A stretch of 64,000 nt of DNA from Polytrichum commune (lineage: Eukaryota; Streptophyta; Polytrichopsida; Polytrichales; Polytrichaceae). Location of the stretch: NCBI GenBank assembly GCA_950295325.1, contig OX485804.1, positions 58,578,429 through 58,642,428 on the forward strand, given 5' to 3'. A program made the position numbers and the translations under genes. The notes beneath the pieces are model-generated. The model did not search any database and was not told the DNA's origin. It was given only the letters and a program-made list of their open reading frames with translations. Positions 21,188 through 58,876 of this stretch are shown here, one piece after another. How positions within the stretch are numbered: the first letter of the stretch is position 1; every line of letters starts with the position of its first letter.

Positions 21188-21197
21188 AAACTTATGA
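21188..21197. repeat. Left target-site duplication AAACTTATGA
   Basis: The 10-bp AAACTTATGA is repeated at 39810-39819. Both copies lie in copia coding sequence; joining the flanks through one copy gives an uninterrupted frame ...NHKF-HTF.... A length of 9-10 bp is the signature of Mutator-like transposition. Confidence 0.92.
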
Positions 21198-21230
21198 GGA
21201 CGAAGCTATTTTGCGAGCGGTGAGCGGTAA
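21198..21230 (+). repeat. Left terminal inverted repeat with two GAGCGGT heptamers
   Basis: From the tip: GGACGAAGCTATTTTGC, then two tandem GAGCGGT units. It matches the right end except at three of the first five bases and by one fewer heptamer. The terminus is short (about 33 bp) compared with classical Mutator ends of 100 bp or more. Confidence 0.88.
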
Positions 21231-21647
21231 CTTCCGAGATATTTTGATTTAAATGTTATTTTAAGCAGTAAATTTATGGTATTGTTGGACTAAATTTATT
21301 TTTAGTAATTTATTTTCTAAACTTAGTGAACAGTGTGACCTATGACCGTGGACAATTAAGGGCTCTGATACAAGAAAAAATGTTATTGTATCAGTGAAAA
21401 ATATGGTTTAGGGTGTTAAATTGAACATTTGGAACTAATATCAGTAATAAATATGGGTTTGTCTCAAGTCAAACACGTATTGTTTTAGTATAATGAGAAT
21501 TAGTGGTACTCTAAAAAGGTCACGCAACTTTGGAACAACGAAATACATGTGGTGCGTCAAATGTCTTGTAGTGGTCCTTTTAGTCTCACTACATCATGAT
21601 TATAACAAATCTTACATACATATGTTACTTTAAAGAAACAGAAAACT
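21231..21647. other. Left terminal non-coding region of the transposon
   Basis: AT-rich sequence between the terminal repeat and the transposase stop codon; it would hold the transposase 3' UTR. No further structure was seen. Confidence 0.6.
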
Positions 21648-24600
21648 CTAAGAGTCAAGGTACTTCAGCAAACCACCTTCCAAAACTCGCTTCACTTCGT
21701 TGAAGCTAAAACTAGCTGCATGAATGAACGTGTCTGATTCTGAGTCCAAACCACAGACTACAGTAAACAAATAGTACAAATGCTTACAGTTGGCCCATTG
21801 ACCCCTTTTTCCAATTGCTTTAGTCGCCATGTCCTTGAAGTTAGGATAAGTGCATGCTGGCAGTTGCGAAATCGTCAAGTAGTATTGCTGAACCTTTGGG
21901 GGCGTGCCGAAATCCAACGAGACGATGCATCCTAAGCCAGGGGCTGGAAGCATGCACAATTTGTGCACTTTGGCTTTCAGTGATAGGGCTGAGGCACAAT
22001 TATTGGCGTGTTTTGTTGGCGGGGCCTTCTTGTTGCGCCTAATCAACTTCCCTGAACGCCGGGTGGGAAACTCATCCGGATATGCAGGAGTCGTGTAGCT
22101 TGCTAAGTCCAAAGGTAACGGGTGGTCCTGAAAAATTCTGGAAGGTGTCATCTCCTTCCGCTGGGGCAGTCTAAATCCTGCGTTTTCTAAAGAGAGGATC
22201 TCTTTGCAGGTTAAGTTGGTCCCCAACTTAACCGGCCATACCTCCGGAACGTTCGGGATTGAGACCACCCACCTCCTTTTTGTACCCTTAACGCATCTCT
22301 CAATGTCGTCATTGCAGAAAAAGAAGTCTTGAGGGTCCAATCTCTTCTTCCGATAGTTATCCATGAGGCCTGAGTAGGTAGGTGCAGCGGTGCTCTTCCC
22401 GTCTTGTACAATCCAAGCGACGCACTTCTTCTTGGTGATTGCTTGTAGAGCAAAGCAAGCCTTCGCAGATGTCTTAGGCAGCCGTGCGATGTGCCACTGG
22501 GCAGGGTTGCATAATGTCTCCTCAATCGCGGTGACGTGGTGCCGATCTACCCGTTGCAGAGCGTCGTGTGTTGGAAATTGTGGTTGGTTTTCATCTGAAG
22601 TTGTGGGAGAATATGGAGTTGTGGGAGAATATGGAGTTGTCACAGGAGGTGGATAATCGTTCAGTCGGGCAGATCTGGTTTGGACGCGTGGTCGGGATAT
22701 ACTGATCTTGTCTGGCCTGTGAGATTCACGTTCGTCACCGAAAGCAGTATCCGGTTTACGCTTCAGAGAAACAAATACCTCTTTCCCTTCGAGGTGGGGA
22801 GTCCTGGTGCACCACTCGTCAGCGCCAGGCATCTTCAAGATGGCCTCATGCAGCGGTTTCGAGATTCCTGTTTTTACGGCAGACCTCTGAGTACGCCTCA
22901 GCTTCAATTCCTCCTTCGACGGTCCAGTTCCAGGGTTCTCTCCCTTTAGGAATTGGGAATATGCTGAACACTGCATGAAAGCACGCACGAAGTTATCGAT
23001 TGTTGCCACATAAAGGTCGCTGCCCCGATCGCCAGATTGTTGCTTCCACTTGTTGTGGATAGATTCAATAAGGTTACAGGATGGCATTTCCGCTAGTTCA
23101 GCTTCACTTAGATCCTGCAATGCCCATACAGTCCGAATTAGAATAATGGCGGAATCAATGTAATTGAAGCATAAAGTGAGAACTATACAGGAAATATAGA
23201 GGGAAGCATAGACTTACCAACTCCATAAATCCACCCCATTGGCGGAAACGGAAATGCCAAAAGGCCAGCCAGAGCTCCAGTCGAGGTAGACCTTGTTCAG
23301 TTGCTGCCCCGGATGACATCCACCATGCCCGAATTGCCAAATATTTTGTCTCGGCCTCCGCCATCGATTTTGCATTCTTGTATTGCTGGCATAGTATTCG
23401 ATGCTGATGTTGCAGGTCTTGACGGATATCGGCCTTGGTATGTTTCTCCAAGGACTGCGTCCAATGGAAAAGACAAGTCCTCTCTCTATCCACCATCTTC
23501 TCAGACACATCTCCACTTCCGTAAATGATTCGAACAACATTCCAGTTGGCTTGGGCACTGTCGGCCATGAAACCTTTAAAATTGACTTTGTCCACTCCAT
23601 GTTGAGCCATGAGAGCGTTCAGGTTCTTCCATACGACTGACTGGGCTACAACATCTTCAGACTGCATGTCGCATACTGCGATGGTCATGACACGGCAATA
23701 TGTGGAATCGTACACATGGCAAGCCATTATCGTCCACGACCTGACACGTTTGACATGGTCAAACATTATCCAGGAGTTCTCCAAGTCACCACCGGGTTGC
23801 ATTCGTTTGACAAGGTCGACTCCGCTGCCCGGTCCAACTTCAGACATCTTGAAGACAAAGACCTTGTCCATGTCCGCTCCTTGCCCTGGAAACCTATTCT
23901 GTTGCACGAACCTCCAATTGCTAGCACCGCGTAACTTGGTAATACTATCCATGACTCCAAAGCGACGCATAGTCCTGAACGTGGTGACTGCGTTACGAAT
24001 GTTGGGCAGTGTCGCAACCCTTGCTAGGTCCCTTAATAATCTTGCCAATTTTCGTTTCTAGCAAAGGTTACGAGCGCTAACCCTTCGCATTCCGCCATGC
24101 TAATGGATAGCTCCTCTTACCCCGGACCAATAGTTCATAGGAGGGAACCAACCCTCCTACTTTGCTTTCGGGACTCACCCCTTAATCGGTAACCCATTTC
24201 CCCAATGTGGACTTCCATCCATGGAAGTCCAATCCTATGTTGATCATCGCGTTGCCGGAGCAACACTACAACAACCCGAAGCATACTAGGCAACTATGGC
24301 CTCACAATAGGCCAAAGCCCATGGAGGCCTTGCCGTTCGGCCTCGGGTGGGTGAGGCCACACCACCTCACCCATATAAGCCTCTAGGACTTCACGCGGGG
24401 CCCCTACCCCACCGTCAACCAACCTCTTGTCTCTCTACCAAGAGTTGGGGCCAAGTGGACATTTTCCTTTAGCTGCTGGGCCTAGAACCCCCCAGCAGCT
24501 TCAGACCATCATAACTTCCTTGTATGATGTCTGATCATAACAACCAACCACTCCATCTTCATCTACGTTTCACGTAGATGCCGATGGACTCCTCACTTGC

Positions 24601-27177
24601 CCCATTTGGGCAAGTTATGAGGACGTTATGCCTCTTTGAACCTTGGCAGTCCCGGGAGTCACTCCCAGGCACTGCTGCACCAGGGCGCTGTCCCGGGACA
24701 GCGCCCCACTCAAATGGCCATAACTCCTAGCTCACACCTCCGATTGAGGTGTTCTTGAGCATTCTAGAATCACCACGCTATGAGCTACGCATAGCTCATG
24801 GCCTTACCCTCATGCTTCCTAGTCTCAGTGGGTGGGAGGCGTTCCCAACGCCCGGGGCCCTCACCCACACTAGGATCACTTGGGCCCTCTCACCAATGGC
24901 GCCACAAGTCCCGGGTGTCACTCCGGGGTCCCCCTTGTGCCCATGGTGTTTCGGGCACTCCTTATGGAGAGGTGCGCGACAGGCGAGGTGAGGTGCTTAC
25001 ACCGATCGAAAATAACTTGCAGCTCGTCTAGCTCCAAGATCTTTTGTGGGTCACCTTCTTTAGCAAGGAGGAGTGGGCCCAGTACTTCCTTTGCAGTTTC
25101 AAGCACAATAGCGGAGCAAGTGGCTGATGGGGTGCGTTCGACTTGATCCCCAATCAAGGTGTTTGTCAAATCGATGAAGTCCCAATGATCACCTGACTTG
25201 ACGGGATGGTCGTGAGATCCCAAGTGCACACAAGCCCTCGTCATGTGAGGTGTCGCGGTAACATAGTAGATCTTCGCAGTGCAGACAGCAACACAGGTGG
25301 GAGGGACGTTACATGATTTGCAAACAACGGTCGAACCAGTTGGAGGCTTGGAACCCACTTCAAACAATTTCTCAGACAATCCTTCTCACTCTGTTTCATT
25401 CACTTTGGAAATCCTATGGTCTCGCTGAAGATACTCACAGGCAGGATTGTCGCAACGGAGGTGGCCCAAACAAGAAGATGCACGAAACAAAAGCTTCAGA
25501 TCATTTTGAATATTGGATGTAATTGTGCGAGTCCAAGCATGGCCATCGTACCTTCTATCCATTCCACGAAGCAGCTTGGCCTTTGTATTATGGCCATGGT
25601 CACCTAAAGGTGGAAACTCGAAGATAACGTCCCCATCGTAACGAGGAGGAAGGTAATCAACCTGTTGGAGTCTGATCGCATCAAAGTTAATTCGAGATAA
25701 CACACTTTTGGACCGCTTACGAGCTCCAAGGCGCATCAATGAATGAATGATATTGACAAGAGGACTTGCCACAACCTTGGCCTGACCAGGATTAGGAGAC
25801 GGACTAACAGGAGGAGTTGTTTCCTTGCGAACTACTTGTGGAGACAACGAAGCTTGGACTCTGCTCGCTGATTTTAAGAATTCAACATCGCCGTCGGAAT
25901 CATCACTCAACTCATAAATTGTATTTAGACCGGGCTCAATTTTGACCTTAGACAGCACCGGTCTCTCAATGCTAATAGTGGAAGACTCCTTGGGTGTTAG
26001 AAGTTCAGTGGAACACTCAAACATAGACTCGGAGACTCCATATACACGATATTTTCCAGGCTTCAACAACCAGAACGTACCGACGTCATTATCTACTCTA
26101 GTCTGACGAACTGCATGTGAAACTAGACCGGTATGATCGTCAAAAACTTCTTCTTCGACAAAGATAGTGACCTCACGATATTGAAACCTCAAACTCAATG
26201 TTGCACAAGTGACTATAGCATGACCGTCTTCACCTAATGGAAAGAGGACCGGAACAGAATGAGGTTCAGCATGAAGCAGGGCTATAGTATACCACAGAAC
26301 TCTGAACAAAACAAGTACTGTGAACATTGAAATGGCATGAATATATAAGAGGGAACAAATTACTGTGCAAACTGGTAATTTATGTACCAGCAAGCAGAAT
26401 TTCAGAAGATAATAGAGAGACATGGAGAGTAAGCTGAAAGACGGCTGAAAAACCATTTTTGGATGCAAGTCCCAGATAGGTAAGAAACCGATATCTATTT
26501 CAAACATAATATTCCAATATAAATAGAGCAAAAGAGGTGGGCGTATCATATACACTCACAAGGTGTTATGTTTACCTGTTTGCAAATAGTAGAAACCAAG
26601 AACAGACATACATACATTCTAAACATTGTTGGTTATAATATATATTGGCAAATAAGGCCATAAGAATGACGGCCGCCACGAATAATGTGGAGAGCATGAT
26701 AGTAGCTCTGCAATAATAAATCCCAAACAATAGAATGCTACATTGTGATTAACGACAAAGACGCTTATGGGGCCCTTTGCCATTTTTGTCACCGTCATGT
26801 TTATGACAATGGTCAATCCCTAAACTATGAACTGCAGTGCATCCTGCGCAACCGAGTTTCTGTCGTTTGGGAAGTGGGAAACTCCTTAATACAGATCTAG
26901 AGTACGTGCCCGGTTTAATAACCCCTGCTCTAGAATATGCATGAGTCTGTAAAGTAGACAAGTCCTCTATCAGCGTTGCAACATCCGCTTGCAAGGATGG
27001 AGTCCGTGCATGTGGACTCTGAACCACGACCGCCGGAGTAACTGTTGAGTCAGGTGGGTTGTCAATCTTCATGTTGTTGACAACTGCGAAACCATCGATG
27101 GACAACGTGGTGTGAACTTGAGATGTACTAGGAGAACCTAAAGGAGCAGGGTTTGGGAGACTTGAGTCAGTACCCAT
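21648..27177 (-). pseudogene. Mutator-type transposase with GCM1/WRKY-like zinc finger, one nonsense codon
   Basis: The likely start is the ATG at 27177 (MGTDSSLPNP), about 55 bp after a TATATAA on the same strand. Exons follow at about 27177-26751, 26290-25003, 24040-23218 and 23114-21648. The second exon encodes a cysteine-histidine module: CLGHLRCDNPACEYL, CKSCNVPPTCVAVCTAKIYYV and RACVHLGSHDHPV, whose closing HxH fits the WRKY-GCM1 finger often found next to MULE transposases. The third exon has the RNase H-fold pattern: FDHVKRV, then FKGFMADSAQANWNVVRIIY with CLFHW. The fourth begins DLSEAELAEMPSCNLIESIHNKW, a typical post-catalytic helix. The 103-bp intron 23115-23217 has perfect GTAAGT/GCAG borders. 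A TGA at 25386-25388, where the pattern suggests TGG, interrupts the finger. The product would bind the termini and cut and paste the element. Confidence 0.82.
24041..25002 (-). other. GC-rich 962-bp intron or insertion in the transposase gene
   Basis: Between two clear coding blocks lies a GC-rich stretch unlike the other introns. It holds many short perfect dyads, such as GCGCTGTCCCGGGACAGCGC and TGGACTTCCATGGAAGTCCA-like sequence near 24215. Splicing from GTGTAAGC (5' end at 25002) to TTGGCAAG (3' end at 24041) joins the blocks in frame as ...VIFDR-LLRDLARV.... Its composition suggests a transposable segment, perhaps an LTR fragment, that has become or enlarged an intron; no target duplication was found. 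Confidence 0.5.
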
Positions 27178-27615
27178 TGGAGAAGAATATGATGAGATGA
27201 CATGAAGGAATGGGTACAAGCAATCGGGTATTATATACACCTAGGGTAGACACCAATGCACGAATATTTGATAACATGTTAGATCAATTAATAGTCAATG
27301 TTTATTTATGTAAATGTTGGACACCCTGTTTCATGTAGGAAAAGAATGTACTACAATAATAGTCAATACTTTATCAACTACCAAATATGTGACATGGCAG
27401 GATTCTATTATGTAGAATAGGTTTTAGTGCCGCCAATTGTAGTGTATTAATGCTGTGTGGATTAACAGAGGAATAAATCAAGGAAATGCAGATTAATTAT
27501 CTAAATCCAATGTGAACACAATTATCCAAAATGTGAACATAATGATGGAGAAGATGTTAATTATGACAGAGTTGACAATGATATATAAGATCTGTTTGCT
27601 TCAATATTATTAGAG
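27178..27615. promoter_or_regulatory. Divergent promoter of the two transposon genes
   Basis: The 438-bp gap separates the two divergent starts. A minus-strand TATATAA lies at 27231-27237, about 55 bp before the transposase ATG, and a plus-strand TATATAAG at 27582-27589, about 27 bp before the ATG at 27616. The paired TATA boxes support both chosen starts and suggest co-regulated divergent transcription. Confidence 0.6.
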
Positions 27616-28489
27616 ATGAACACTAGGTCGAGAGCGAGAGCAGATCGAAAGATTAGGAGGACTATTGAAAAACAGAGGCGTATTGAGAGAAGGCAAAGGT
27701 TAGAATCAAGAGGGAGCTTAGGAACGCCGTACAACTTGTGGACAACAATGGGTAGACGAGGGGTTAATTCTTCTAGGGGCACAGGTAGAGGTTCCAAAGG
27801 GGAAAAAACGTTTGATGTTTCAGAGGTAGCTCCAGTAGTATTATTTCCTGTATCGGAGGAAGACAACGAAGTTGACAAAGGGGGCAGTGAGGTGATGTTT
27901 ATCTGCAATCATAATGAAATTTTTATATGTGCAATCATAATGTTAAGTTCTATCACGGATAGTTGGAACAGATGAGACCCTCTAAATTCCCTTGTTGTGT
28001 GGACAATGGTATCGGCTCCTTTATGTTGTGTTTTATGTTTGGTGGGGGATTGTGAATTGGGTTTGGTTTGGGTATCTGGAACAGGGAATGACGCAGACAC
28101 AGGTTCAACCTGAGGCAACCTCCAGTGCCTCAACATCAGATCAAAGTGAGGAGCAGGTTTGTAAAGATTGTAATCAATTGGTGACTTGAATGGTTTTGGG
28201 TTTAGGGTAAGGGGTCTTTCAAATGCTAACATTGTATAAGGCCAAATTCATAGCTAATGAGCACCGGACATATACACTTAACAGATCCTTGGCGAATTCG
28301 ATCAAGGCGCTGATAAAGGTGATCTTCGCGAAGCAAGAATGGACAATGAAGAACAGCAATTCGGGGAAGAGGTACGTTGTCCCACACAAAAACACCCTGA
28401 ATTTTATTTTTTTGCATAGTGTTCGGAGATCCAAGATTGTAAACTGAAATAAGGTAGACACCTATACCTGCCGAGGGAGACATTTCTGG

Positions 28490-30470
28490 TGAGGGGGAGG
28501 GTTGACGGTTGAGGGTGAAGGTGAGGGTTTTGTGTCGTTCTTGGAGTTCTTGAAATCTGATGTGAGGTCTAGATATGGACGTATTAAGGTCAAACTGATG
28601 TGAGGTTAGATATGTGGGTTACAAGTGTTAGGTTTTCTAAGGTTAGTTAGCTATGTTGGGTATTAGGGTAATCTGATGTAAGCGTAGAAATTTTGAAATT
28701 CCAGGGCCGAGTTTCAGTGTCTCAGTGCCGAGACACAATTTCTGGTTTTCAAACTGTAAACCCTACAATCATATTTGATATGGAAATCTAGATTTACTTT
28801 GTATAAGGGTACTCTGATATGAGACTACACATGTGTGTTTGAAGTGAAATTTGATGTGAGGTCTAGATATGCTAGTATTAAGGTCAAACTGATGTGAGGT
28901 TAGATATGTGGGTTACAAGTGCAATCTGATGTGAGGTCTAGATATGCTAGTATTAAGGTCAAACCGATGTGAGGTTAGTTTGCAATTGTGGGTACAAGGC
29001 TAATCTGATTTTAGCTTAGAAAATTCTGAAATTCCAGGGCCGAGTTTGAGTGTCTCGGTCACGAGACACATTTTCTGGTATTCAAACTATAAACCCTACA
29101 ATGATATTTGATATGGAAATCTAGATTTACTTTGTATAAGGGTACTCTGATATGAGACTACACATGTGTGTTTGAAGTGAAATCTGATGTGAGGTCTAGA
29201 TATGCTAGTATTAAGGTCAAACTGATGTGAGGTTAGATATGTGTGTTTGAAGTGCAATCTGATGTGAGGTCTAGATATGCTAGTATTAAGGTCAAACTGA
29301 TGTGAGGTTAGATATGTGGGTTACAAGTGCAATCTGATATGAGGTTAGTTTGGACTTGTGGGTATACGAGTAATGTGATTTAATTTTCGAAATTTCTGAA
29401 ATTCCAGGACCGAGTTTGAGTGTCTCGGTGCCGAGACACAATTTTTGGTATTCAAACTGTAAACCCTACAATGATATTTGATATGGAAATCTAGATTTAT
29501 TTGGTATAAGGGTACTCTGATTTGACACCAAACATGTGTGTTTGAAGTGCAATCTAATGTTAGGTCTAGATATGCAAGTATTAAGGTCAAACTGATGTGA
29601 GGTTAGATATGTGGGTTACAAGTGCAATCTGATATGAGGTTAGTTTGGACTTGTGGGTATACGAGTAATGTGATTTAATTTTCGAAATTTCTGAAATTCC
29701 ACGACCGAGTTTGAGTGTCTCGGTCCCGAGACACATTTTCTGGTATTCAAACTGTAAACGCTACAATGATATTTGATATTCAAATCTAGATTTACTTGGT
29801 TTAAGGGTACTCTGATTTGACACCAAACATGTGTGTTTGAAGTGAAATTTGATGTGAGGTCTAGATATGCTAGTATTAAGGTCAAACTGATGTGAGGTTA
29901 GATATGTGGGTTACAAGTGCAATCTGATATGAGGTTAGTTTGGACTTGTGGGTATAAGGGTAATCTGATTTAAGCTTCGAAATTTCTGAAATTCCAAGGC
30001 CGAATTTGAGTGTCTCGGTCCCGAGACACATTTTCTGGTTTTCAAACTCTACTACCTACAATCATAGTAGATATTGATATCTAGATATGCTTGTTATAAG
30101 TGTACTCTGATATGATGTTAGAAATGTTTGTTAGAAGTGTAATCTGATCTAAGGTTTGATATCTGTAAGGATAGGTAGGTTTGAAATTGAATTTTAGAGT
30201 TGATTTCTAGTTTCTCGGTCCCGAGAGACTATTTGAGACTATCAAACTCTTCCACCTCACTATGACTTTAGGGGCTATAAGTGTAATCTGATATAAGTGT
30301 AACCTGATATGAGTGTAATCTTATATAAGTGTAACCTGATATAAGTGTAATTTGATATATTGTAAATTTGCAATGTGAGCTAAGAGGGTGATCCGATGTA
30401 AGGATCACTATTTCATGAGTTGAATATTTGTGCCTAGTACTAGTGTCTCGGTCCTGAGACATGTCTTTTG
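28490..30470 (+). repeat. Array 1 of palindrome-bearing repeats (seven dyads)
   Basis: Diverged units of about 295-370 bp, themselves built of roughly 30-bp phrases such as AATCTGATRTGAGGTTAGAT. Each main unit holds a dyad close to GTGTCTCGGTCCCGAGACAC: 28717-28736, 29050-29069, 29420-29439, 29715-29734, 30010-30029, 30210-30229 (degenerate) and 30443-30462. GAGTTTGA on the left and TTCAAACT on the right of many dyads form an outer inverted pair. The array lies in the intron before the ParB exon. Confidence 0.9.
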
Positions 30471-32559
30471 ATGGTCAAACAATACCACATACACTTATAA
30501 CTGATGGCAGCTGAGCTCATGTTCTCTCCTTGATTAACTAATACATATATTTTGCAAGTAGAGAACAACGCAATGGAGGATGTTCCTGCTCTTTCTCTGT
30601 TTTCTCTAGACTATTCTGAAGAGGGTCAGGATGAGGATGAAGAGGGGCTTGGAGATAGAGATCCATATGAAGGGGATGAAGATGATATCAGGACCCGACA
30701 GAAACTTAATTCTGTTGCCACGATTTCTCGACTGAGAGTCCAACCCCTGAGTTCCTCAAGGTTCCTTATTCCCTTGTGCAGAATGTTGGCCATGCCTATG
30801 GTGAGGCCAACTCTCCCAAGTGATCTTGCTAAATTGGAGCAGGAGTTTGTGCATGGGTATAGAGAGGGTGCCTCGGTATTTTATGTGACAATAACAAATG
30901 AAGAAGGAAAAACACATGAGGTTACTGAGGCTGATAAGGCATCGTGGGGTCCTATTTGGAGTGCCAAAAATGAACAATTCAACTCCTTTCTTCTGTCCGT
31001 TCCAGAGTTAGCCGGTTTTACGAATTTGATGTTCTTTGTTTGTGACGGGAACCATAGGCGGCAGGCTTGGTTGAACCATATTAAACGACTTCACAAAACA
31101 GAAGAGTCCTAGCATTTTTTGGTGGATAGCATCCTCCTTGACACCAAGGGAAAAATTGGTATTGTTATGCAAGTTATGCATAATATCAACAAGTAAGTTT
31201 TCTAAGTCCATTTTTTGAGGTTTTCATCTATGTACATATATTATGTTGTTCTTGTCTTTAATATATGATTGTTACTTGTAGACATACGGAAGATTCTCAC
31301 GTGAAGACAAACACAGTTCACACTCTATTTAGGATGCAGAAGTATGGACTTATGCCGCTCGAACAGTACCAAGACATTTTGACTCCCTCTGACATTAAAA
31401 GGTGCAAGAAATCTCAAACTTCAAAGAAGACATGGTATTCATTAAATCTACATGTATTCACGAGCTTCATCTTCCAGGTATGATGTGATGTTGATGCTTG
31501 ATGATGTGATTACTCTTATATCTAATCCCTTTCAACATTTGGTACTTATAATTGATGTTTGAATGTTTTTGTTTCTTTATGTGCTTTCATAACACCTTTT
31601 TGTCGCAGTTGTTTGATTACAAACTAACTATGGTAATCCCTTTCCAGCACGAACTGGCACTTGCTGCAGATGAGGGCGTTCGTCAACTTCTTGAGCAAAC
31701 GGATGGAGAGGTGTCTGCTGCTGAAAAAGCAGCCGCCATGAAGGTCGCTGCTTCAAAGAGAGTCGAGGCACTTCATAAGAAAATGTCAAAACTAGTTTGT
31801 GTGGCAAACCCAAACTTGACAGATGGATGGCTTCGGGAGGTATGTCCACTATTTTAAAACCCATTCTACATTTTTCAAGTAATTCATTAATCTCCATGAT
31901 CTTAATATATTGCTCTATGGGTCACAGATTGCGCGTCACTATACTCTTAATTCAATTGCACCCGAGCTCAACTTAGAGAAATTGCAGTTGATCGCTACTG
32001 CAAAAGCATCACCCGCTTGTAAAATCAAATGGTTGGAATATTTCAATTCCTCTTCATCAACATGTGAGGCTCGCAAACTGCCAACCAAGCCCACCAATGA
32101 GGACAAATTGCAGGCATTCCTAGCCAAGGCATGTTTTTGGGAAGGAGTGAGTACATAATCCCCTATGTACCCTTTAGTTCGGTGTTACTTGATTTGATCC
32201 CTTACATTAATTGGTCTTTCTCTTGGTTTCACGGTTATTTCAATATATGAATCGATGTTGCTCAAATTCTTGTTCATATTCACTCTCTGTATATACAGAT
32301 ATCCGATCAGGCTTCCATTATATTTGAAAACACTTTGCGCCAAGACAGACTTGCTATCAACTTTGCACTACCCAGTGAGCCCTTGACCTTGGTTGCATAC
32401 ATCGAGGACTGTAGAATGAAATTATGGGACAACGCGTTTCCCACATTCTTCCGAGGGCAGGAGGCCTTTAACAAAACTCACGAATTTGAGGGATTTAACG
32501 GGACAGACTTGATTGTCCGAAGAGTTATCTTTCGGTGAGTTCTCTCCTTTCATACTACA

Positions 32560-34500
32560 GTTCTATATGTGTGTTATAAGTGTACTCTCATATGATGTTA
32601 GTATGCACTTTGAGGTATTAGGGTAATCTGATATGAGGTTAGAAATTTGTGTTATATGTGAAATCTGGTGTGTGCTCTACATTTGGTTGTATTAAGGGTT
32701 ATATGTGAAATCTGATATGAGGTTATATATGCTTGATATAAGTTTAATCTCATATAAGGTTAGTTAGCAATGTTTGATATCTACAGGTACTTCTTATAAG
32801 TGTACTATGATATGAGGCTAGATATGTGTGTTATAAGTGCATTCTGATGTGATTTCTAGATATGCTTGTATTAAGGTCAATCCGATATGAGGTTAGATTT
32901 GTGTGTTATAAGTTTAATATGATGTGAGGGTAATCTGATATAAGCTTAGTTAGTGATATCTGATATAAGCTTAGTTAGTGACATTAGTTAGGGCCTAGTT
33001 TCATATAAGCCTAGAAATCTCTGAAATTCCAGGGCCTGGTTTGAGTGTCTCGGTCCCGAGACACATTTTCTGGTCTTCAAACTCTAAACCCTACAATGAT
33101 ATTTGATATTGAAATCTAGATTTACTTGGTATAAGGGTACTTTGATATGAGGGTAGAGATGTGTGTTTGCAGTGAAATATGATGTGATGTCTAGATATTC
33201 AAGTAGTAAGGTCAAACTGATGTGAGGTTAGATATGTGGGTTATAAGTGCAATCTGATATGAGGTTAGTTTGCAATTGTGGGTATAAGGGTAATCAAATT
33301 TAAGCTTAGACATTTCTGATTTTCCAGGGCCGAGTTTGAGTCTCTCGGTCCCGAGACACATTTTCTGGTATTCAAACTCTACTACCTATAATCATAGTAG
33401 ATATGTGTGTTATAAGTGCATTCTGATGTGATTTCTAGATATGTTTGTATTAAGGTCAATCCGATATGAGGTTAGATTTCTGTGTTATAAGTGTAATATG
33501 ATGTGAGGGTAATCTGATATAAGCTTAGTTAGTGATATATGATATAAGCTTAGTTAGGGTAGTCTGGTTTAAGCTTGGTTAGTGCAATCTGAGATGAGCT
33601 TAGGTAATGAAATCTGATATAATCTTAGTTAGGGGAGTCTGATATAACCTTAGTTTGGGTAACCTGATATAAGCTTAGTTAGGGCCTAGTTTCATATAAG
33701 CCTAGAAATCTCTGAAATTCCAGGGCCTAGTTTGAGTGTCTCGGTCCCGAGACACATTTTCTGGTATTCAAACTCTACTACCTACAAACATGGTTGCTAT
33801 TGATATCTACCTATACTTGGTATAAGTGTACTCTGATATGAGGCTAGATATGTGTGTTATAAGTGCATTCTGATGTGATTTCTAGATATGTTTGTATTAA
33901 GGTCAATCCGATATGAGGTTAGATTTGTGTGTTATAAGTGTAATATGATGTGAGGGTAATCTGATATAAGCTTAGTTAGTGATATCTGATATAAGCTTAG
34001 TTAGTGACATCTGATATAAGCTTAGTTAGGGTAGTCTGGTTTAAGCTTGGTTAGTGCAATCTGAGATTAGCTTAGGTAATGAAATCTGATACAATCTTAG
34101 TTAGGGGAGTCTGATATAACCTTAGTTAGGGTAACCTGATATAAGCTTAGTTAGGGCCTAGTTTCATATAAGCCTAGAAATCTCTGAAATTCCAGGGCCT
34201 AGTTTGAGTGTCTCGGTCCCGAGACACATTTTCTGGTATTCAAACTCTACTACCTACAAACATGGTTGCTATTGATATCTACCTATACTTGGTATAAGTG
34301 TACTCTGATATGAGGCTAGATATGTGTGTTATAAGTGCATTCTGATGTGATTTCTAGATATGCTTGTATTAAGGTCAATCCGATATGAGGTTAGATTTGT
34401 GTGTTATAAGTGGAATATGATGCGAGGGTAATCTGATATAAGCTTAGTTAGTGTTATATGATATAAGCTTAGTTAGTGACATCTGATTTGGCATAGTGTT
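32560..34500 (+). repeat. Array 2 of palindrome-bearing repeats (four dyads)
   Basis: Same repeat family as array 1, filling the intron 32535-34567. Dyads are at 33045-33064, 33340-33359, 33736-33755 and 34208-34227. A 472-bp unit (about 33600-34480) is nearly perfectly duplicated, so it expanded recently. Additional phrases AGCTTAGTTAG/GATATA occur in tandem. Confidence 0.9.
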
Positions 34501-35639
34501 TTGGTTTTTAATATGGCAGCTATGTCAATTGCAAGGTATTTAATGATGAGCTGTGTCTTTCCCGCAGGTATTTCAAGTACGAGCTCCTTGCAAAAGGAAC
34601 AATAACAAAAGAAGATCTCCCTATATTCCTCTCAGCATGGCTTGACAGGTCTAACTCCACGTGCATGTTCTCAGCAAATCAACAGCGTACATGGTCCACC
34701 TCACATCTCACTGGAGGTGGTTGGTACCTTGACTGTGCTCCTAGTTTCACTCCTTCCTTTGAAACTGAACTTAGGAAGTCAAGGGAGGCAGTTGGAGAAT
34801 CTGGTGTTGAGATGATTGACTTACAGGGCATAGAAGACGAGCATGAGAGGGCAAAGGCCCTATCCCGACGTCTAGAAGAGGATAGGAAGAAGGCGCTTAG
34901 AGTAAAGGAAGCAGAGGAGAAAGCCGCATAGAAAGAGATGGAAAAACTTCAAAAATCATTGGAGAAGACTACCATGAAGGGGAAAAAGAAGATGAACCCC
35001 CATTCTGAGCTAGAAGGTAAGAGTCCCGTTGCTCCAAGTCCAACCTATGAATCTGGTTCTCATGCTCCAACATTTTCTAGAGGAACAAAACGCGATTCCT
35101 CCTATGAGCAGTTGAGTCAAATTCCTATTTTGACATCGGGGGAGGAGCTCGATATCCATATTCAAGAACTCATTCTCAACGCCTCAATGGAGGACGTTCT
35201 TGGCAGTGACACGGAGGAATTCACCCCTTCCTACAACGAGTTGAAAAGATTCATGCTCAAGGTACTGCTCTTCCTTAATTTTGTCATAACATGTTTGCAT
35301 TTAAATTTATGCATTTCAATGTGGTCCACATTGAACATTCAGTAGGTACTACTTTTCATATTTCAGTAATCGGCCATAATTTTTTTTGGGACCGAATCAT
35401 GGATCTGACGAGTAAGGTTGGTAGGGTATAGTTTATGTGGGACCCAAACACCATGTGGAGTGCGAGCTGAGCCCTCAATGGACTCGGCAATTTGTTTTGT
35501 GCTTGCAATCGGCCATTTGTTTTGTTGTACCATTTTGTTTGTGGAAATTAGGAGTTGAAATATGAATGGTGAGGTGTCATGTTAATTTTTGAACTTTTTT
35601 AGTCGGAACACTGTTTAAGTGAAATCCCCGCCCTCTCTG

Positions 35640-36640
35640 AATTCTACCTTCTCTGAAATATGATGTGAGGTCTAGATATGCAAGTATTAAGGTCAAACTG
35701 ATGTGAGGTTAGATATGTGGGTTACAAGTGCAATATGATATGAGGTTAGTTTGCAATTTTGGGTATTGGGGTAATATGAGGCAAGTTTAGAAATTTCTGA
35801 TTTTCCAGGGCCGAGTTTGAGTGTCTCGGTCCCGAGACACATTTTCTGGTATTCAAACTGTAAACCCTACAATGATATTTGATATTGAAATCTAGATTTA
35901 CTTGGTATAAGGGTACTCTGATATGAGACTACACATGTGTGTTTGAAGTGAAATTTGATGTGAGGTCTATGCTAGTATTAAGGTCAAACTGATGTGAGGT
36001 TAGATATGTGGGTTACAAGTGCAATCTGATGTGAGGTCTAGATATGCTAGTATTAAGGTCAAACTGATGTGAGGTTAGTTTGCAATTGTGGGTATAAGGG
36101 TAATCTGATTTAAGCTTAGACATTTCTAATTTTCCAGGGCCGAGTTTGAGTGTCTCGGTCCCGAGACACATTTTCTGGTATTCAAACTCTACTACCTACA
36201 ATCATAGTAGATATTGATATCTAGATATGCTTGTTATAAGTGTACTCTGATATGATGTTAGAAATGTTTGTTAGAAGTGTAATCAGATCTAAGGTTAGAT
36301 ATATGTGTTGTAAGGTCTATCTGAACTGGGGTTGAATATGGGTGATATTACTGTAATCTGATGGGAGATAAGATATCTGGGCTATATTTGTTATCTGATA
36401 TCGGGTTAGATATGTGTGTGATATGAGGTTAGATATGTGTGTTATAAGTACAATCTGATGTGAGGTTATATTCGCATGTTATAAGGTCAATCTGATATGA
36501 GGTTGAATATGGGTGTCATAAAGGTACTTTGATCTGTGGTTAGATATGTGGGTAACAAGTGTAACCTGATAAGAGGTTAGATTTGTGTATTATATAAGGT
36601 TAGTAATGAGTATAGATATGTTTGATATAAGGGCTAGTAC
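35640..36640 (+). repeat. Array 3 of palindrome-bearing repeats (two dyads)
   Basis: Same family, in the intron 35262-36705 immediately before the methyltransferase exons. Perfect dyads are at 35821-35840 and 36150-36169. Flanking phrases are nearly identical to array 1, which suggests exchange or recent copying between introns. Confidence 0.88.
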
Positions 36641-38184
36641 TAGGCAATGTACAAAGCAAGGAGGATTATTTTAACACCAAACCTGGTTGTCCTTTGATTG
36701 TGCAGCACTCAAAAGACAAAACCCGGCACTACAAGGGTTCTCCGGATGACCATCCCTGTTTGGACTTGATTCTTGCAGATATACCGGAAGGTCTTCCTGT
36801 TCCTGGCATATCAAACCCACCGTCGTCCATTCCCGCTTGGAATCAAGAATCGAAAGAGTGGTTACAACCACTCTTTGACTTTGCCGACGAACATCTGCAC
36901 GACGACGGGGCAATTATTTTGTTTCACCCTTTTCGCATGAGTACGAAGTCCAATATTCTTGGATATTGCAAATCGTATGGTTTTGCAATTCGGAAAGAGT
37001 GGTGGGGAATGAACCGCCTTCATCTTACATCTCCAATAAATCCAGCATCAACTGTAAGATAAAGCTTAAGTCTTCTTTCTGATCACCGCATTCAGTTTCA
37101 ATTTCATCCTTGAGGTAGTTCTGAGTGTAGACCCACCTAACTATTATACTCACGCAGTTCTGTTGTTCACTTTGTAAAGTAATATTGATCTTTATGTCTG
37201 GTACATTATAGACCATGAGGCTCGGTATTTCATTGGCGGTCAGGAGCGTGCCGGGGTCACCTGCATCGAAGTTTTCATTTCGCCATGTCCCTGAATTGGA
37301 TCCTTATGGGGTGGATGTTGCACGGGATGATATTCTCCAGAACTTGGTCTCTCGTGAGGACCAGCTAACTAATGGATCCACACCATGGCGAGGGCCTCGT
37401 GAAAAGTCCGTGCTTCTAATGCAAATGCTAATTGAAGCATGTAGCTCCCCATGGGATATTATTCTAGACTGCACGGCAGCGACCGGTATGTCTTTGTAAT
37501 CTTGCATTTCAATTGGTTAATTGTTAATATTGTTTTGTTCTACAAAATTCATAGTGGTTTTTGTACTAAGTTTTTCCAACTTCTTTATTTGCAGGATCTT
37601 CCATTCATGCCGCAATGTGCACCGTCACATTGCGGCATTAGAGGCTGATGTAGATATTTTTGAGGCCGTACTTGCTCCATTGATTATCTCTAGAGCAGCC
37701 TCTGAAGTCACTCTTGAAGACCGTGTCACCAGTGTAGAGGATCCTGAGGGTGAAGATATTCCCGTTGAGAGGATTGTGAAGAGATCTCGGTTTACTAAGT
37801 GAGTATGGTCCACAAATTCTCTTACCAGTGTTATGTTTTTTGCTGTCATTTCTTCTAAAGTTGAGTTATGAACATGGTACCATTGGCATTTGCAGATGCG
37901 ATAAATTGAGCTATCCTATTCACCGGCCTTTTTTTTGTGACCCTAAATTCTATCCCAGCCCTCCAAAGTCTTAGCAACTTCCTACATAAGCAAATGTTAT
38001 TGCTAATCAACTAGCTGGAGGTTCTTATCAGACTTTTACATCTAAATATCATCCAGGAAGAGTTTTAGAGTTTTTGGATATAGAAGCTTTAGAATCAGAT
38101 GGTCAGGCCTCCTCTGATGCATATATTAGTGATTCTAGAATGTCTTCATCATCACGTGATCACAGTGATTCGGATCTGATGTAA

Positions 38185-39769
38185 TAGCTTCATGTGAATG
38201 TCTGTGTACTATCTAATATACCGGTTTTTCTTCCGTTGGTTTTTCAGTTTGTGCACTCATTCCGCATGAAATTCATTGTATTTGTATTACTTTCGGAATT
38301 TATGGGATTGCATATATAAATTTGCAGATTTAGGTTAACTTTTGACTTCGTGTTTTCTGATATTGTTCACTTAATTCCATAATCGGCCTATTAGTTCATA
38401 CCCTTCTCTTTGAAATTTAAGGGTTTCCACTATTCTTCTATTATCGTTTTCATATATTTTTTCAATGCTTGCTTACGATTTTAGGCGAATGTTGGGTTGA
38501 ATAATTCACCATCAACCTCACCATTAATGTCACCTCATGAAATTTGGCATTCAAGTGTCTTGACTAATATCTCGGCATTAGTATGTTCCACAATGATATG
38601 AAGTGCACACCTATATTACACAATGGTCTACAAGTTGACTAAAGTGTACACCAACGACACTTGACATTGGTATGCTCAAGAATATCTTCCCCTTGCATAC
38701 TTCAATGCGGTCTAACAAACTTTTAGTACATATAGATCCATCTCTAGTTAATTCTACTAGAATAATTCAAGGTCTTTGATCTTGATTAAGGTGTTAATTG
38801 GGTTTAGACCAATCATTCACATGTTCTACATGATAATTAGTTTCTTTGCTCTCCCCTTTAGTAGGTGTCAGGAAACTTTAATCCCAATCAAGGATCAAAC
38901 ATTATGGCAATACTATAAGTTGAAGGTGACAAAAAGTTTATTGTTTAATATCGCTTAGGTTTTTAATTATTAAGACATAATTTACTTTAGACTCATGATC
39001 ATAGATATACTCCAAATGAGGTTAGAATATGCAATTTTAATGTCAAAAACTTCCAAGTTCACATAGAATTGTGGTCATTGGATTGGATCATAATTTTCCC
39101 ATTTGGCTAGCGATTGAGAACCAAGAAAATTTTTATTTCATGTTTCAAAATTGAAGTTGAGATGCAAAGGTTATAATAAGTCAAAGTGAAGAATTTAATT
39201 TTTTTAAATGATGACTCGAGACCTCCTAGTTGTGTTGAGTGTTAAACCAAGAAGGCTTGTGCTTAAAATATGGACATCATCCTAGGTTTTATGTTCAACA
39301 CAATTGCTCTTCTTAAATAACCACCTATATTTGAGTGGTATATAGTAAGGTGTTGTTGTTAGAGGAACATGTTGTAAACACTTCCAACATTTTCAGTTTC
39401 TTTAATATTTTCTTTAAGTTTCTTTCAACATTTTAAGTTTATGCTCATATATATATATACACACACATACAAACGGATGGGTCTTCATGGGCATTACGTG
39501 TGAGGCCTGCAGCATTGGGGTTTGGAGATTCCCTCACCACAATAGATGGAATCTTACTTGCTAAATTGCTAGAGGTTGTCATGAAATTGTCGTGGTCAGG
39601 TAATATCCTGAACCTCCAAGAAGGTGCAAGCAAATACTATATAGGTTCCTCCACCACGGTTATAGGTTCTTTTTGTCAATAAATTTGTCAATAAATATTT
39701 CAAAAGTTAGCTCTACACCATGGCCATAGGGCATGTTTCACCTGACAAAATTTCAATATTCTAGAAAAC
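38185..39769. other. Right non-coding part of the transposon
   Basis: AT-rich sequence after the methyltransferase stop. It contains the dispersed repeat copy B (38490-38720), an AT/AC microsatellite at about 39449-39471 and, at 39480-39660, a slightly more GC-rich patch open on both strands that could be a captured exon fragment; I do not recognise it. Confidence 0.5.
38490..38720. repeat. Dispersed non-coding repeat, copy B (empty site for a MITE)
   Basis: Colinear with 6400-7560, but without the two MITEs found there. The segment GACATTGGTATGCTCAAG here corresponds to GGCATTAATATT...TCTCAAG interrupted by the insertion at 7100-7510. Confidence 0.6.
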
Positions 39770-39809
39770 TTACCGCTCACCGCTCACCGCTCGCAAAATA
39801 GCTTTTCCC
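39770..39809 (-). repeat. Right terminal inverted repeat with three GAGCGGT heptamers
   Basis: Reading inward on the minus strand: GGGAAAAGCTATTTTGC, then three tandem GAGCGGT units and TAAG. The left end has two units. Confidence 0.88.
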
Positions 39810-39819
39810 AAACTTATGA

Positions 39820-55889: not shown

Positions 55890-58864
55890 TCATTCAACGT
55901 GGGTTGCTTCTTGTGCGATCTGAGCAAGGTTGTCTTTTGCAAAAGTTATGTACTTTTGAGGGATGGACACTGATCCACTATGGTTTTTCCGTGGTTTCCA
56001 TGCTATGAATATGGAATTTGTATCTATCCAAGATGGACCGTGCTCAAAATCCACCTTCCACCGAAAGTTTTGGTTCATATCCCAGCCTATATAATGCCGA
56101 AGCACATCTTCATTCCGTGTTGTCGGTCGGTAGTACTCCACTTGTATTTGTCGAAAATGAGGGCTGGAAGTTGTAAAATTTGGTTTGGACAAAGCTCTTG
56201 CCACCCACACTGGCTTCTCATATGTCTCGTCTCCAGGACGCAAAATGAGCATATAACCTTCATGACAATCCACTGCAATGTGGAAAGATGGTGGGGGACG
56301 ACTACTAGCAGGCCCCACGTAATGGTCGTCCACATCAAACTCCTCCTGAACCTCTCCATTTCCCAAAATACTAGCCTCCGAAGCTTGTACATCGACCCGA
56401 GTTTGTGGCCAAAATCCGTGCCTCAAAGTATGAGGGCTATCTTGGTGGAGGTCTGCCAAGGCGGCACAAACACGTGTCCAATAATGTATCCAACTCCCAT
56501 AACGATGCCAATATGATCCGCCAACATCCGCTATCTGCAAACTCTCCCAATATTGTATGAAGCTTGATATACCTTTCAAAATATCCTCCAAATTCTTCAT
56601 GGCTATTGGCTTGCAAGGCCTAGGCTCTCCATCCGGTAACATGGTATTTCCATCCGTATCCACACGCCACACAAGGAGACCCTCCGGCGGGCTCCAGTCT
56701 TGTGTCGTGCACAACAACTTGTACTGCATAGTCGGGACACCATCGTCACGCATGTAGAAGCGGAATTGTTGTGCCTTCGTATGCCCAATCAATCGGTGAG
56801 CTCCACTTCGAATATAAGGTTCTATAAATGCCTTGAAGTCTGGCACCTCCTCGATCATATGGGGGATGACGGGAACGTTCTCCAAATCCATGTACGACTT
56901 CATCAATAACGGGATTGTCGGAAAATCCTCCTCCCGCAACTTCATGCTCCACCGCCCAAAAGATGCATCAATATCATCGTGCGTGTGGCCTACCAATAGG
57001 AAGGACACAAATACCTCCTTGAAAATGCCTTTCGCAACCAACAACGACCAATACGCAAATACATATCTACTTTTATTGTCCTTCGCACAATTGTCCAATT
57101 GGACACGCAAAGTAGGGGGCAACTTCTTGGCAATCACGGGTTCATTGGGTGGTTCCGGCAACGAGTGCAAGCATACATCTTTTCCATCCAACACCGCTCC
57201 ATATAGAGGTGTTGAACCCATGTTTTCAAATAACACTCTTGAAGAATAGGTTGGCGGTTTCTCTAAATCACGTAAAAGCCTTGCAAATGATCCTATCGTG
57301 TGGTTTGAATCTGCTGGATACAAATCAAGAGCATAATGAGCAAACTTGACATCACCGTGTCCATGTGCAATCATTCCTGCAATGCCACCCCAATGTGATT
57401 AATATCTATGTATATCTAAACCATTTTAAGTGAATCCATCTTCTCAAGTACATCACGGAATAAGACACCACTACATTTATGGTATGTCATGACATTGTTT
57501 TGAAGTTCACCTGTAACCGATACAGGCAACTTAAAAAATCCATCCGTGGCCTTGATTTGATTCGCAAAACATGGGGAGGCTGTTTTGGCATGGTCCATTT
57601 TGTCATGGATGACCGTAAGAACCTCCAAGGGCCTGAAAATGGACAAAGCTCTATTTGTGTAGTAATCATTACGGTGTGCCTCTTGCATGTTTACGTGCTT
57701 GAAATAGTTCAATTGGTGCGCCGCATATGACTCGGTACCCATCGTGTGTGCATCCCGAAGGCGCTTCAACTTCTCGCAATTAGAACAGCGGCCAAATTTG
57801 TCCCCTCGTCTTTTTGTAATGTATTCGCTAAAGTTTGTTTTCTTGATTGCACTCAATTTTGACAATGAAATTGGCTCCAATCCAATTTTCTCGCCAACTG
57901 CATTCACGTCCAACAACATGTCTTTCCATTTTGTGCCTGTAGGAAGAACTTTCTCCACAACCTTTTCACCGGTTGTGAGCGTGCGTGTTTTGTGCGGCAT
58001 TGTATCAGCAAGGGGGACAATGATGGTCGCTAGAGTGGCCGTTGCTTGCCTTGTTGCTTCCCTAGGTTTCTTTAAACCCACGTTCCCATGGTGACGGGAC
58101 CGGCGGCCTTCCTTGGCATAAGCAGCTTGTCTGTAGAAGTCCGTTTTTGACACACCGTGAATGGTGTACCATGTCTTACAACACACGTCTATGCTTTCAA
58201 TGGTGATGACTTTGCGACCCGTCCCATTCACATGTATCGCCCTATGAACATCAAGTTTTCTTGTGGATCTTAGACGGAAATCTCCAAGCCACATTTCTTC
58301 TCGGATGGCCTTCAATTTGTCCCTTGGAAACAATTGGCAACAATGATGCACACAACAATCCTTTGTGGCAACTTCTCTAATGGACTCCTCCCCGAGTAAC
58401 CTTTGACGTTTACAATCAGTTGCAGACGGAGCAGGACGTGCCAATGTATCGTACTTTCTTTGACCCTTGCATGGCCGCATATTTGATTGGAGCTCCTTTT
58501 CGATTTGCATGTGTCGTTGCTCATGTTCACGCAAGCTAACTCCATCAATCGTGACATTCCTCAATGGCCACCTGCGGAGGGAGAACCTATGAGTGGGATC
58601 CACCTCGGAATGAACGAGCGACTCCAATATGACAACCCCAACGTCCTCAGTGCCAAGCGGGTTTTCATCAATGCAATCTTGCGGATGGGTGTTTCGACAA
58701 ATCCCCTCCGCCACAACAACTCCACTCTCATTAAGAAGTACCACCTCCAAATTCACCCACGAAGCCCTTGAAAGTCCCGTACATTCAACAGTGCGACAGT
58801 GCGGTACGGAAGGCGAACGTAAATCAAAATGATCTTCATCTGCACTGTCCCCACTACTTGCCCA
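55890..58864 (-). CDS. DUF7869-like protein, candidate transposase of an undescribed element
   Basis: Two long coding blocks (58864-57420 and 57374-55890; about 970 residues) are open apart from one short gap that looks like an intron ending TTGCAG at 57377. The first block has a cysteine-rich part (KDCCVHHCC), a linker with KKPREA, and a second CxxC module (CSNCEKLKRLRDAH). The second block holds VQLDNCAKDNKSRYVFAYWS (aspartate at residue 93) and FLLVGHTHDDIDASFGRWS (residues 126-143), the hallmark of DUF7869 proteins. The LDN and HTHxDID acidic residues resemble an RNase H-like active site, but that is inference. No in-frame ATG occurs near the 5' end; a pyrimidine-rich TTTTCCTCAG at 58865-58874 suggests an upstream exon beyond the palindrome array. 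The exact splice at 57420/57377 is one base out of phase with the obvious donor. Confidence 0.7.
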
Positions 58865-58876
58865 CTGAGGAAAAGG

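What the first reader, a model, noticed from the sequence alone, without database searches (positions are those of the whole stretch)
21198..39809. Plant Mutator-like transposon encoding a ParB-DNA methyltransferase fusion
An element with clear boundaries (inverted termini, 10-bp duplication, copia frame restored on excision) carries, beside its transposase, a many-intron gene joining a DGNHR ParB-type domain to a permuted amino-DNA methyltransferase. ParB-methyltransferase fusions are known from phages and plasmids, and eukaryotic DIRS elements carry a Dam-like domain, but I know of no plant cut-and-paste element with this gene. It could protect or mark the element, or counter host silencing through N6-adenine or N4-cytosine methylation.
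Basis: partly seen in the sequence, partly recalled or inferred. Interest (0 to 1): 0.93.

Follow-up and report, generated by a model that had tools for sequence, protein, structure and literature searches.

The report
Plant transposon with ParB-methyltransferase and palindromes
A family of jumping genes carries, next to its own mobility gene, a DNA-binding and methyltransferase-like protein together with repeated palindromic DNA sites that differ between its branches, which looks like a home-made system for tagging or un-silencing its own copies.

Summary
The element is real: 21198-39809, inverted ends with a perfect 26-nt match, 10-bp target duplication, inside a copia gene. It has a minus-strand transposase (IS256/Mutator-type by predicted fold) and a divergent plus-strand gene joining a ParB-type domain (GNHR) to a permuted amino-methyltransferase domain. 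The window copy is broken, but its 408-Mb genome holds at least 40 exon-1 copies (89-100% identical); 14 of 20 fetched carry all ten exons. As protein, exon 1 gives 1,133 candidates; the 150 scored are 41-100% identical. A relative (ParB exon 38%) sits in the same layout beside a related transposase and passes the Pfam N6_N4_Mtase cut-off. The methyltransferase exons are under purifying selection (dN/dS ~0.14), yet motif IV reads DIPEG, not DPPY. New here: four of six ParB lineages looked at carry their own palindrome with a 2-bp centre, in three of them repeated: TGTCTCGG-NN-CCGAGACA (13 in this element), GTTTGGGTCG-NN-CGACCCAAAC (9,231 exact in the genome), TGTTTGTGCGC-NN-GCGCACAAACA, AATCCCACGG-NN-CCGTGGGATT. 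Best reading: a VANC-like, self-targeting factor loaded at parS-like sites. Binding and function are inferred. ParB-methyltransferase proteins are already known from algal transposons; this is a new variant with apparent cognate sites.

The parts
21188..21197 (.). 10-bp target-site duplication, left copy (AAACTTATGA)
   Evidence: exact match to 39810-39819
21198..21228 (+). left terminal inverted repeat
   Evidence: 26 of 26 complementary to the right end over 21203-21228
21648..23114 (-). transposase, last exon region (third acidic residue context NLIES, placed by eye)
   Evidence: open frame, acceptor; similar to the tail of P0006
23218..24057 (-). transposase core exon (VYD..., MADSAQANW, CLFHW)
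   Evidence: 90% identical to P0001; predicted fold of P0001 matches ISCth4 transposase
24060..24945 (-). 886-bp repeated insert inside the transposase gene
   Evidence: two copies in L026 (96%), part in L043 (95%)
24946..26285 (-). transposase N-terminal part, with an in-frame stop
   Evidence: 81% identical to P0001 over 1-446
28717..30462 (.). seven copies of palindrome GTGTCTCGG-NN-CCGAGACAC (some with one or two changes) in the region between the two divergent genes
30573..31192 (+). exon 1, ParB-type domain with DGNHR (in-frame stop near 31110)
31282..32534 (+). exons 2-5 (31282-31477, 31609-31839, 31928-32146, 32299-32534)
33045..34227 (.). four copies of the palindrome in intron 5
34568..35261 (+). 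exon 6, GGGWYLD motif and charged linker (in-frame stop near 34929)
35821..36169 (.). two copies of the palindrome in intron 6
36706..37053 (+). exon 7, methyltransferase motif IV region (DIPEG)
37212..37485 (+). exon 8, target-recognition stretch and start of motif I (LDCTAATG)
37595..37802 (+). exon 9, rest of motif I and adjacent strand (frameshift in this copy)
37896..38190 (+). exon 10, C-terminal tail (stops in this copy)
39779..39809 (-). right terminal inverted repeat, ends TTTTCCC
   Evidence: same end before different flanks in 14 of 20 other copies
39810..39819 (.). 10-bp target-site duplication, right copy

Best explanation
This is a Mutator/IS256-class DNA transposon lineage with two long-associated genes: a transposase and, divergently, an element-encoded ParB-type/amino-methyltransferase protein. 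The protein most likely recognises its own element through the iterated palindrome with a 2-bp centre that lies in the shared non-coding region and introns. A ParB-type clamp would load there and spread, bringing the SAM-binding domain onto the element. The outcome would be self-marking (6mA or 4mC) or exclusion of host silencing, a VANC-like role, so that mainly copies with the cognate sites are affected. Shown: gene and transposase carried together in many copies and in a diverged lineage; methyltransferase homology and purifying selection; palindromes that differ between lineages and are more conserved than their surroundings. Inferred: protein-palindrome binding, NTP use, methylation or other chromatin effect.
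For: Co-carriage: exon 1 and exon 7 each have 40 scored copies (of 108 and 139 candidates). 14 of 20 fetched copies have all ten exons, and 14 of 20 have the TTTTCCC right end before different flanks. 13 of the first 18 exon-1 rows (97% or more, full length) have a transposase on the expected side within 40 kb. Deep association: at C1:9652700-9672500 a relative (ParB exon 38% identical, methyltransferase exons 37-39%) lies divergent to a transposase 55% identical to P0001 in the core and 37% in the N-terminal part. Methyltransferase: PF01555 E=1.1e-7, 32.5 bits against cut-off 26.7, for that relative; PHROG 7.5e-5 for the window family. Selection: exons 7-9 dN/dS 0.135-0.14 at dS about 1.5 between subfamilies; ParB exon 0.16-0.185 against 79% relatives. 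Palindromes: 13 in the element and none elsewhere in the window; arms 97% conserved against 85-87% for flanks; 997 exact in the genome, 0 of the reversed control. Another lineage's palindrome: 9,231 exact, control 0. GxxR P motif (as GNHR) invariant in 9 of 9 aligned ParB exons.
Against: No binding or methylation data. Motif IV is DIPEG in 16 of 18 copies (IPEG in 18 of 18) and DIPYG/DIPDG in the sister family, so the window family may be catalytically dead. No profile calls the ParB domain, and its single-sequence model is poor (pLDDT 40: best fold match E 0.15). The sister protein had no phage match at E<=1 and only weak PDB methyltransferase matches (E 0.31). dN/dS is higher in closer pairs (0.415 for exons 7-9 of L014 against L029, 0.52 for L034 against L035), and L014 and L029 are themselves not fully open. 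The arrays also occur without a nearby listed gene: 14 of the first 50 listed sites of the window palindrome, several clusters of the other, and the 79-bp array at 58877-61183 of this window. Exact palindromes are absent near 5 of 9 listed ParB exons on the first 20 Mb of C1, two of them 89-90% identical. None was found in the 487-560 bp available upstream in L046-L049, two lineages. Palindromic satellites could arise for other reasons, and the transposase or a host factor could be the binder.
Confidence: 0.55

Rival explanations
1. Active self-methylation: the protein is a working N6-adenine or N4-cytosine methyltransferase that marks element DNA, for recognition by its transposase or to block 5mC-based silencing.
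For: Domain homology over the Pfam cut-off in the sister family, permuted motif order IV-TRD-I collinear with phage methylases, purifying selection on exons 7-9; sister L035 keeps DIPYG.
Against: The residue at the catalytic aromatic position is Glu in the window family and Asp in L034; the first glycine of motif I is Ala (DCTAATG); no 6mA/4mC data.
Confidence: 0.3
2. Non-enzymatic clamp: the methyltransferase fold is repurposed (SAM sensing or structural) and the ParB-type part, spreading from palindromes, evicts or blocks silencing factors, as the ParB-related VirB does against H-NS.
For: Conserved DIPEG under purifying selection; GNHR P motif; palindrome arrays; VirB is called a ParB-related antisilencer in the abstract starts listed.
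Against: A SAM-like motif I is largely retained, which suggests cofactor use; no HTH or dimerisation domain was identified.
Confidence: 0.35
3. Transposition co-factor: the protein and the palindromes act in cut-and-paste itself (end pairing, integration, copy control), like a mudrB-type helper.
For: The two genes stay together over large divergence.
Against: Palindromes lie in the middle of the element and in introns, not at the ends; transposase copies without a listed partner exist (24 of 40, lists truncated), and the transposase search had more candidates (876) than exon 1 (108).
Confidence: 0.2
4. Host gene caught by one insertion.
For: Long, many-intron gene.
Against: 14 of 20 other copies with the same right end and different flanks, all ten exons in 14 of 20, and a diverged lineage with the same layout.
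Confidence: 0.02
5. Palindromes are neutral satellite sequence (hairpin-prone repeats) unrelated to the protein.
For: They sit in tandem repeats, and arrays without the gene exist.
Against: Arms more conserved than linkers (99.2% against 84% and 73% in the 79-bp array; 97% against 85-87% in the element) with a freer centre; the same design with unrelated letters in four lineages.
Confidence: 0.2

Closest known systems
Ectocarpus Sola1-1_Ec32 and reported green and red algal transposons with ParB-methyltransferase proteins (PMC12477816, citing Iyer 2011 and Petroll 2025)
   Same: Accessory gene on the strand opposite the transposase; ParB-like domain plus N4C/N6A methyltransferase domain, 1,104 aa; giant element of 21.5 kb (passages, section 5 part 1 and part of the reference list read).
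   Different: Transposase there is Sola-1, here Mutator/IS256-type; no palindrome array is mentioned in what I read; there one family (1,989 copies, 2 intact, table 1), here several coexisting lineages. Sequence homology between them not tested (sequence not held).
VANC/VANDAL anti-silencing MULEs of Arabidopsis (PMC5735166, PMC10398659)
   Same: MULE-encoded sequence-specific factor; target motifs as tandem repeats in non-coding regions and introns that differ between related elements (abstract and sections 8 and 9 of PMC5735166, abstract of PMC10398659).
   Different: VANC21 motif YAGTATTAY is not palindromic; VANC has DUF1985/DUF287, not a ParB-type or methyltransferase domain; binding and demethylation were shown there, not here.
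Prokaryotic and phage ParB-N6_N4_Mtase fusions (PMC12704722)
   Same: ParB-type fold fused to PF01555, on mobile elements (passages read).
   Different: Those are mainly phage/prophage; for eukaryotes that survey names sulfiredoxin as the commonest representative, and the words plant and transpos- do not occur in its main text.
Transposon-captured DNA-modification enzymes: fungal TET/JBP (PMC12730594) and DNMTs in retrotransposons (PMC5890265)
   Same: Mobile elements that carry a DNA-modifying gene, proposed as escape from or use of methylation (abstracts read).
   Different: Other enzyme families; no cognate palindrome arrays in the abstracts seen.

Membership tests
Mutator-like element (MULE) | Terminal inverted repeats and 8-11 bp target duplication (range recalled) | tested here: met
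   26-nt perfect TIR core, 10-bp duplication
Mutator-like element (MULE) | IS256/MULE-type DDE transposase | tested here: met
   AlphaFold model of P0001 (pLDDT 77, pTM 0.43) best matches ISCth4 transposase, E 7.8e-4, prob 1.00, low TM 0.19/0.32; that ISCth4 is IS256 family is recalled; acidic residues placed by eye; no Pfam transposase profile over its cut-off
ParB / ParB-CTPase fold | GxxR P motif | tested here: met
   GNHR invariant in 9 of 9; motif from PMC12704722
ParB / ParB-CTPase fold | Profile or fold match | tested here: inconclusive
   no ParB hit in Pfam, PHROG, NCBIfam (in one search 2 of 9 members matched Phage_tube_C, best E 4.6e-4); poor model; the PF02195 genome search did not complete
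ParB / ParB-CTPase fold | HTH and dimerisation domains, parS binding | not tested
   none seen in the scans; palindromes are candidates only
N6_N4 DNA methyltransferase (PF01555) | Score over curated cut-off | tested here: inconclusive
   window family 19.7 bits, below 26.7; sister L035 32.5 and L034 35.3, above
N6_N4 DNA methyltransferase (PF01555) | Motif IV (D/N/S)PP(Y/F/W) (recalled) | tested here: not met
   DIPEG in window family; DIPYG and DIPDG in L035, L034. Hence filed as methyltransferase-like, not as an enzyme
VANC anti-silencing system | Tandem non-coding target motifs specific to each family | tested here: met
   motif arrays that differ between lineages; that they are targets is not shown
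VANC anti-silencing system | VANC protein homology (DUF1985/DUF287) | tested here: not met
   Pfam scans of the protein pieces give neither
VANC anti-silencing system | Binding and loss of methylation | not testable with these tools
   needs ChIP/EMSA and methylomes

The most novel reading that the evidence does not exclude
A eukaryotic transposon lineage has turned the phage/plasmid ParB-parS logic into a self-recognition epigenetic system: an element-encoded ParB-type/methyltransferase protein loads on cognate palindromes with a 2-bp centre and marks or shields only its own family, and protein and palindrome co-diversify across many coexisting lineages with thousands of sites in one genome.
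Probability: 0.45. Interest if true: 0.95.

Novelty: new variant of a known kind. Interest (0 to 1): 0.86.

Why it matters
If right, it is a second, independently built sequence-specific self-targeting system in Mutator-type elements beside VANC, with a bacterial-style ParB reader, a methyltransferase-like effector and readable candidate sites. It gives several natural protein/site pairs to test, a possible source of 6mA or 4mC in the host genome, and a possible tool for directing chromatin changes by sequence. It also joins an algal observation (ParB-methyltransferase accessory genes of unknown purpose) to a testable mechanism.

Tried and rejected
Host-gene capture: rejected. Direct homologue search for the spliced fusion: none at E<=0.01 or, for the methyltransferase part, at E<=10, perhaps because single-exon predictions fall outside the length limits. 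Viral and prokaryotic contigs: no relatives of exon 1 (viral) or of the transposase. ParB by Pfam, PHROG, NCBIfam, PDB sequence and by a single-sequence fold: nothing usable. Sister protein against phages: no match. Transposase by PDB sequence profile: nothing. Rfam (gathering threshold) and tRNA scans of the window: nothing. An unoriented conservation count of palindromes was discarded because both strands were mixed, and the count located by the right flank alone was contaminated by false units; the figures used are those. The unit walk anchors on the best palindrome match within 5 bases, and the 13 element units were chosen by likeness to the palindrome, which both favour the palindrome somewhat. 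Genome-wide counts for TGTTTGTGCGC-NN-GCGCACAAACA and PF02195 could not be had (tool busy).
Full report
What is there. The element spans 21198-39809 (18,612 bp), with inverted ends (26 of 26 in the core), a 10-bp duplication AAACTTATGA outside and a copia gene on both sides. On the minus strand lies a transposase. On the plus strand, divergent from it, lies a ten-exon gene beginning at 30573. Between them and inside introns 5 and 6 lie repeats.

The window copy is dead, the family is not. This copy has in-frame stops in exons 1, 6 and 10, a frameshift in exon 9, an in-frame stop in the transposase and an 886-bp repeated insert there; its exon 1 stop is shared with L012 and L030. The whole genome was held (407.8 Mb, 64 contigs, window at C2:58578429-58642428). 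Exon 1 scored 40 copies of 108 candidates at 89-100% (plus one 37-base piece), the transposase core 40 of 876, exon 7 40 of 139. Of the 40 exon-1 rows 16 have a listed transposase on the expected side within 40 kb, and of 40 transposase rows 16 have exon 1 (all lists are cut at 40, so these are lower bounds). All ten exons are found in 14 of 20, and the right end TTTTCCC followed by a different flank in 14 of 20 (a 15th hit, L030, is a left-type end). Under my exon model 5 of 21 copies (window included) have open exons 1-9; two of those five show a changed splice donor and one has extra DNA before exon 10. So the gene belongs to the element.

The transposase. A protein search found 57 relatives among 7,597 candidates, up to 90% identical. 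No Pfam family matched over its cut-off. An AlphaFold model on the 57-sequence alignment (pLDDT 77, pTM 0.43) gave ISCth4 transposase as the top four PDB matches (best E 7.8e-4, probability 1.00, the only one under 0.001; modest TM-scores). With TIRs and a 10-bp duplication this makes it Mutator/IS256-type; that ISCth4 belongs to IS256 is recalled.

The methyltransferase half. The window family matches PF01555 below cut-off (19.7 bits), PHROG 3008 at 7.5e-5 and phage DNA methylases collinearly at E 3e-3 to 2e-2 (4 records covering 80% or more), aligned. A search of the genome with PF01555 gave five hits. Three are on small contigs C10 and C12; the one I read (L031) looks bacterial or phage-like. 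Two are on chromosomes and encode a single-exon relative (L034, L035) that passes the cut-off (35.3 and 32.5 bits against 26.7), though it found nothing among phages. Motif IV is DIPEG in 16 of 18 window-family copies, IPEG in all 18, and DIPYG or DIPDG in the relative. Against the diverged subfamily (L014, L029) exons 7-9 show dN 0.21, dS about 1.5, dN/dS 0.135-0.14, so the domain has been under selection with DIPEG in place; closer pairs give higher values (0.415 for L014 against L029, 0.52 for L034 against L035), as expected of recent, partly decayed copies. L014 is a chimera: its ParB exon is nearly identical to the main family (dS 0.03) while its methyltransferase exons are not (dS 1.56).

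The ParB half. The exon encodes ...FFVCDGNHRRQAW.... As a protein query it had 1,133 candidates in a loose first look, of which 150 were scored, 41-100% identical. Across nine aligned members GNHR is invariant, as are parts of the IPLCR, VRP and GYR stretches. GxxR is the P motif of the ParB-CTPase fold (PMC12704722, passages). No profile names it ParB (two of nine members weakly match Phage_tube_C), so ParB-type is a motif-level call, backed by the same two-domain order in an algal transposon.

Depth of the association. The L035 relative sits at C1:9652700-9672500 with a ParB exon (38% identical, one stop), methyltransferase exons (37-39%), a divergent transposase on the minus strand (55% identical to P0001 in the core, 37% in the N-terminal part), a repeat array between the genes and a similar right end. 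The same layout at this divergence means an old partnership. The left end of that element was not fetched.

The palindromes. The element holds 13 sites within two changes of TGTCTCGG-NN-CCGAGACA: 7 between the genes, 4 in intron 5, 2 in intron 6, none elsewhere in the window. Exact 8-2-8 palindromes of all kinds number 11 in the element (8 of them this one) against 0.32 in shuffles; outside the element the window has 30 against 0.92, mostly the separate array below (repeats are not independent). Arms are 97% conserved against 85-87% for 30-nt flanks, and in the diverged L014 the palindrome persists in changed surroundings. GTGTCTCGGNNCCGAGACAC occurs 997 times exactly in the genome, the reversed control 0. 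Of the first 50 sites listed 36 lie within 5 kb of a listed ParB exon (four exons, 77-98% identical), 13 form an array without one and 1 is alone; conversely 4 of the 9 ParB exons listed on that stretch of C1 have them, and five (64-71% and two of 89-90%) do not.

Other lineages, other letters, same design. L036: TGTTTGTGCGC-NN-GCGCACAAACA in a roughly 104-bp array between the genes, five sites, one with a symmetric change in both arms. L044/L045 (ParB 42%): GTTTGGGTCG-NN-CGACCCAAAC just upstream of the ParB exon, 9,231 exact in the genome, control 0. Both ParB exons of that type listed on C1 below 2.17 Mb (479556, 2160454) have such sites 0.6-1.5 kb upstream, but several arrays there have no listed exon (the list holds 150 of 1,193 candidates). 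L042/L043 (45%): a single AATCCCACGG-NN-CCGTGGGATT upstream. L046/L047 and L048/L049: none in the 487-560 bp available. In the window itself a separate 79-bp array (58877-61183) has 30 units of the L044-type palindrome, 25 exact, arms 99.2% against 84% and 73% for linkers, with varied centres, and no such gene in the window.

Reading. Palindromes with a fixed 2-bp centre that differ between lineages, beside a ParB-type gene, suggest cognate site and reader, as parS and ParB. The nearest worked example of the outcome is VANC, whose targets are tandem non-coding motifs that differ between related VANDAL elements (PMC5735166, abstract and sections 8 and 9). I therefore favour a self-targeting anti-silencing or self-marking factor. 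Binding, catalysis and effect are inference; DIPEG leaves catalysis open.

Known or new. ParB-methyltransferase accessory proteins are in print for a Sola-1 element of Ectocarpus and, as cited there, green and red algae (PMC12477816, passages, section 5 part 1, references part 2; Iyer 2011 and Petroll 2025 not seen). My searches (open-licence PMC only, listings read) showed no Mutator-type element with this gene and no palindrome arrays of this kind. A 2025 survey of the ParB fold does not use the words plant or transpos- in its main text. Hence a new variant of a known kind, with a mechanism that can be tested at once.

Host. No tool named it. Seven contigs of 42-78 Mb make up most of 408 Mb; a flowering plant with seven chromosomes would fit, but this is inference.

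Noticed in passing
window 58849-61186: 79-bp tandem array with 30 copies of palindrome GTTTGGGTCG-NN-CGACCCAAAC (25 exact), the palindrome type found upstream of another ParB-exon lineage, with no ParB-methyltransferase gene of that type in the window.
   Followed up: partly
window 24060-24945: 886-bp GC-rich repeated insert within the transposase gene; further copies in L026 (two) and L043 (part).
   Followed up: partly
G000 contigs C10 and C12 (L031-L033): Small contigs with DNA-methylase ORFs; L031 looks bacterial or phage-like, so these are likely contaminant contigs of the assembly.
   Followed up: no
L014 (C3:47635805-47645804): Chimeric copy: ParB exon of the main family joined to methyltransferase exons of a diverged subfamily, a sign of domain exchange between elements.
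   Followed up: partly
C1:468608-471946: Array of 13 GTGTCTCGGTACCGAGACAC palindromes, many 138 bp apart, without a listed ParB exon nearby.
   Followed up: no
all four palindromes: Each half-site contains a CG dinucleotide, so CG methylation by the host could affect recognition.
   Followed up: no
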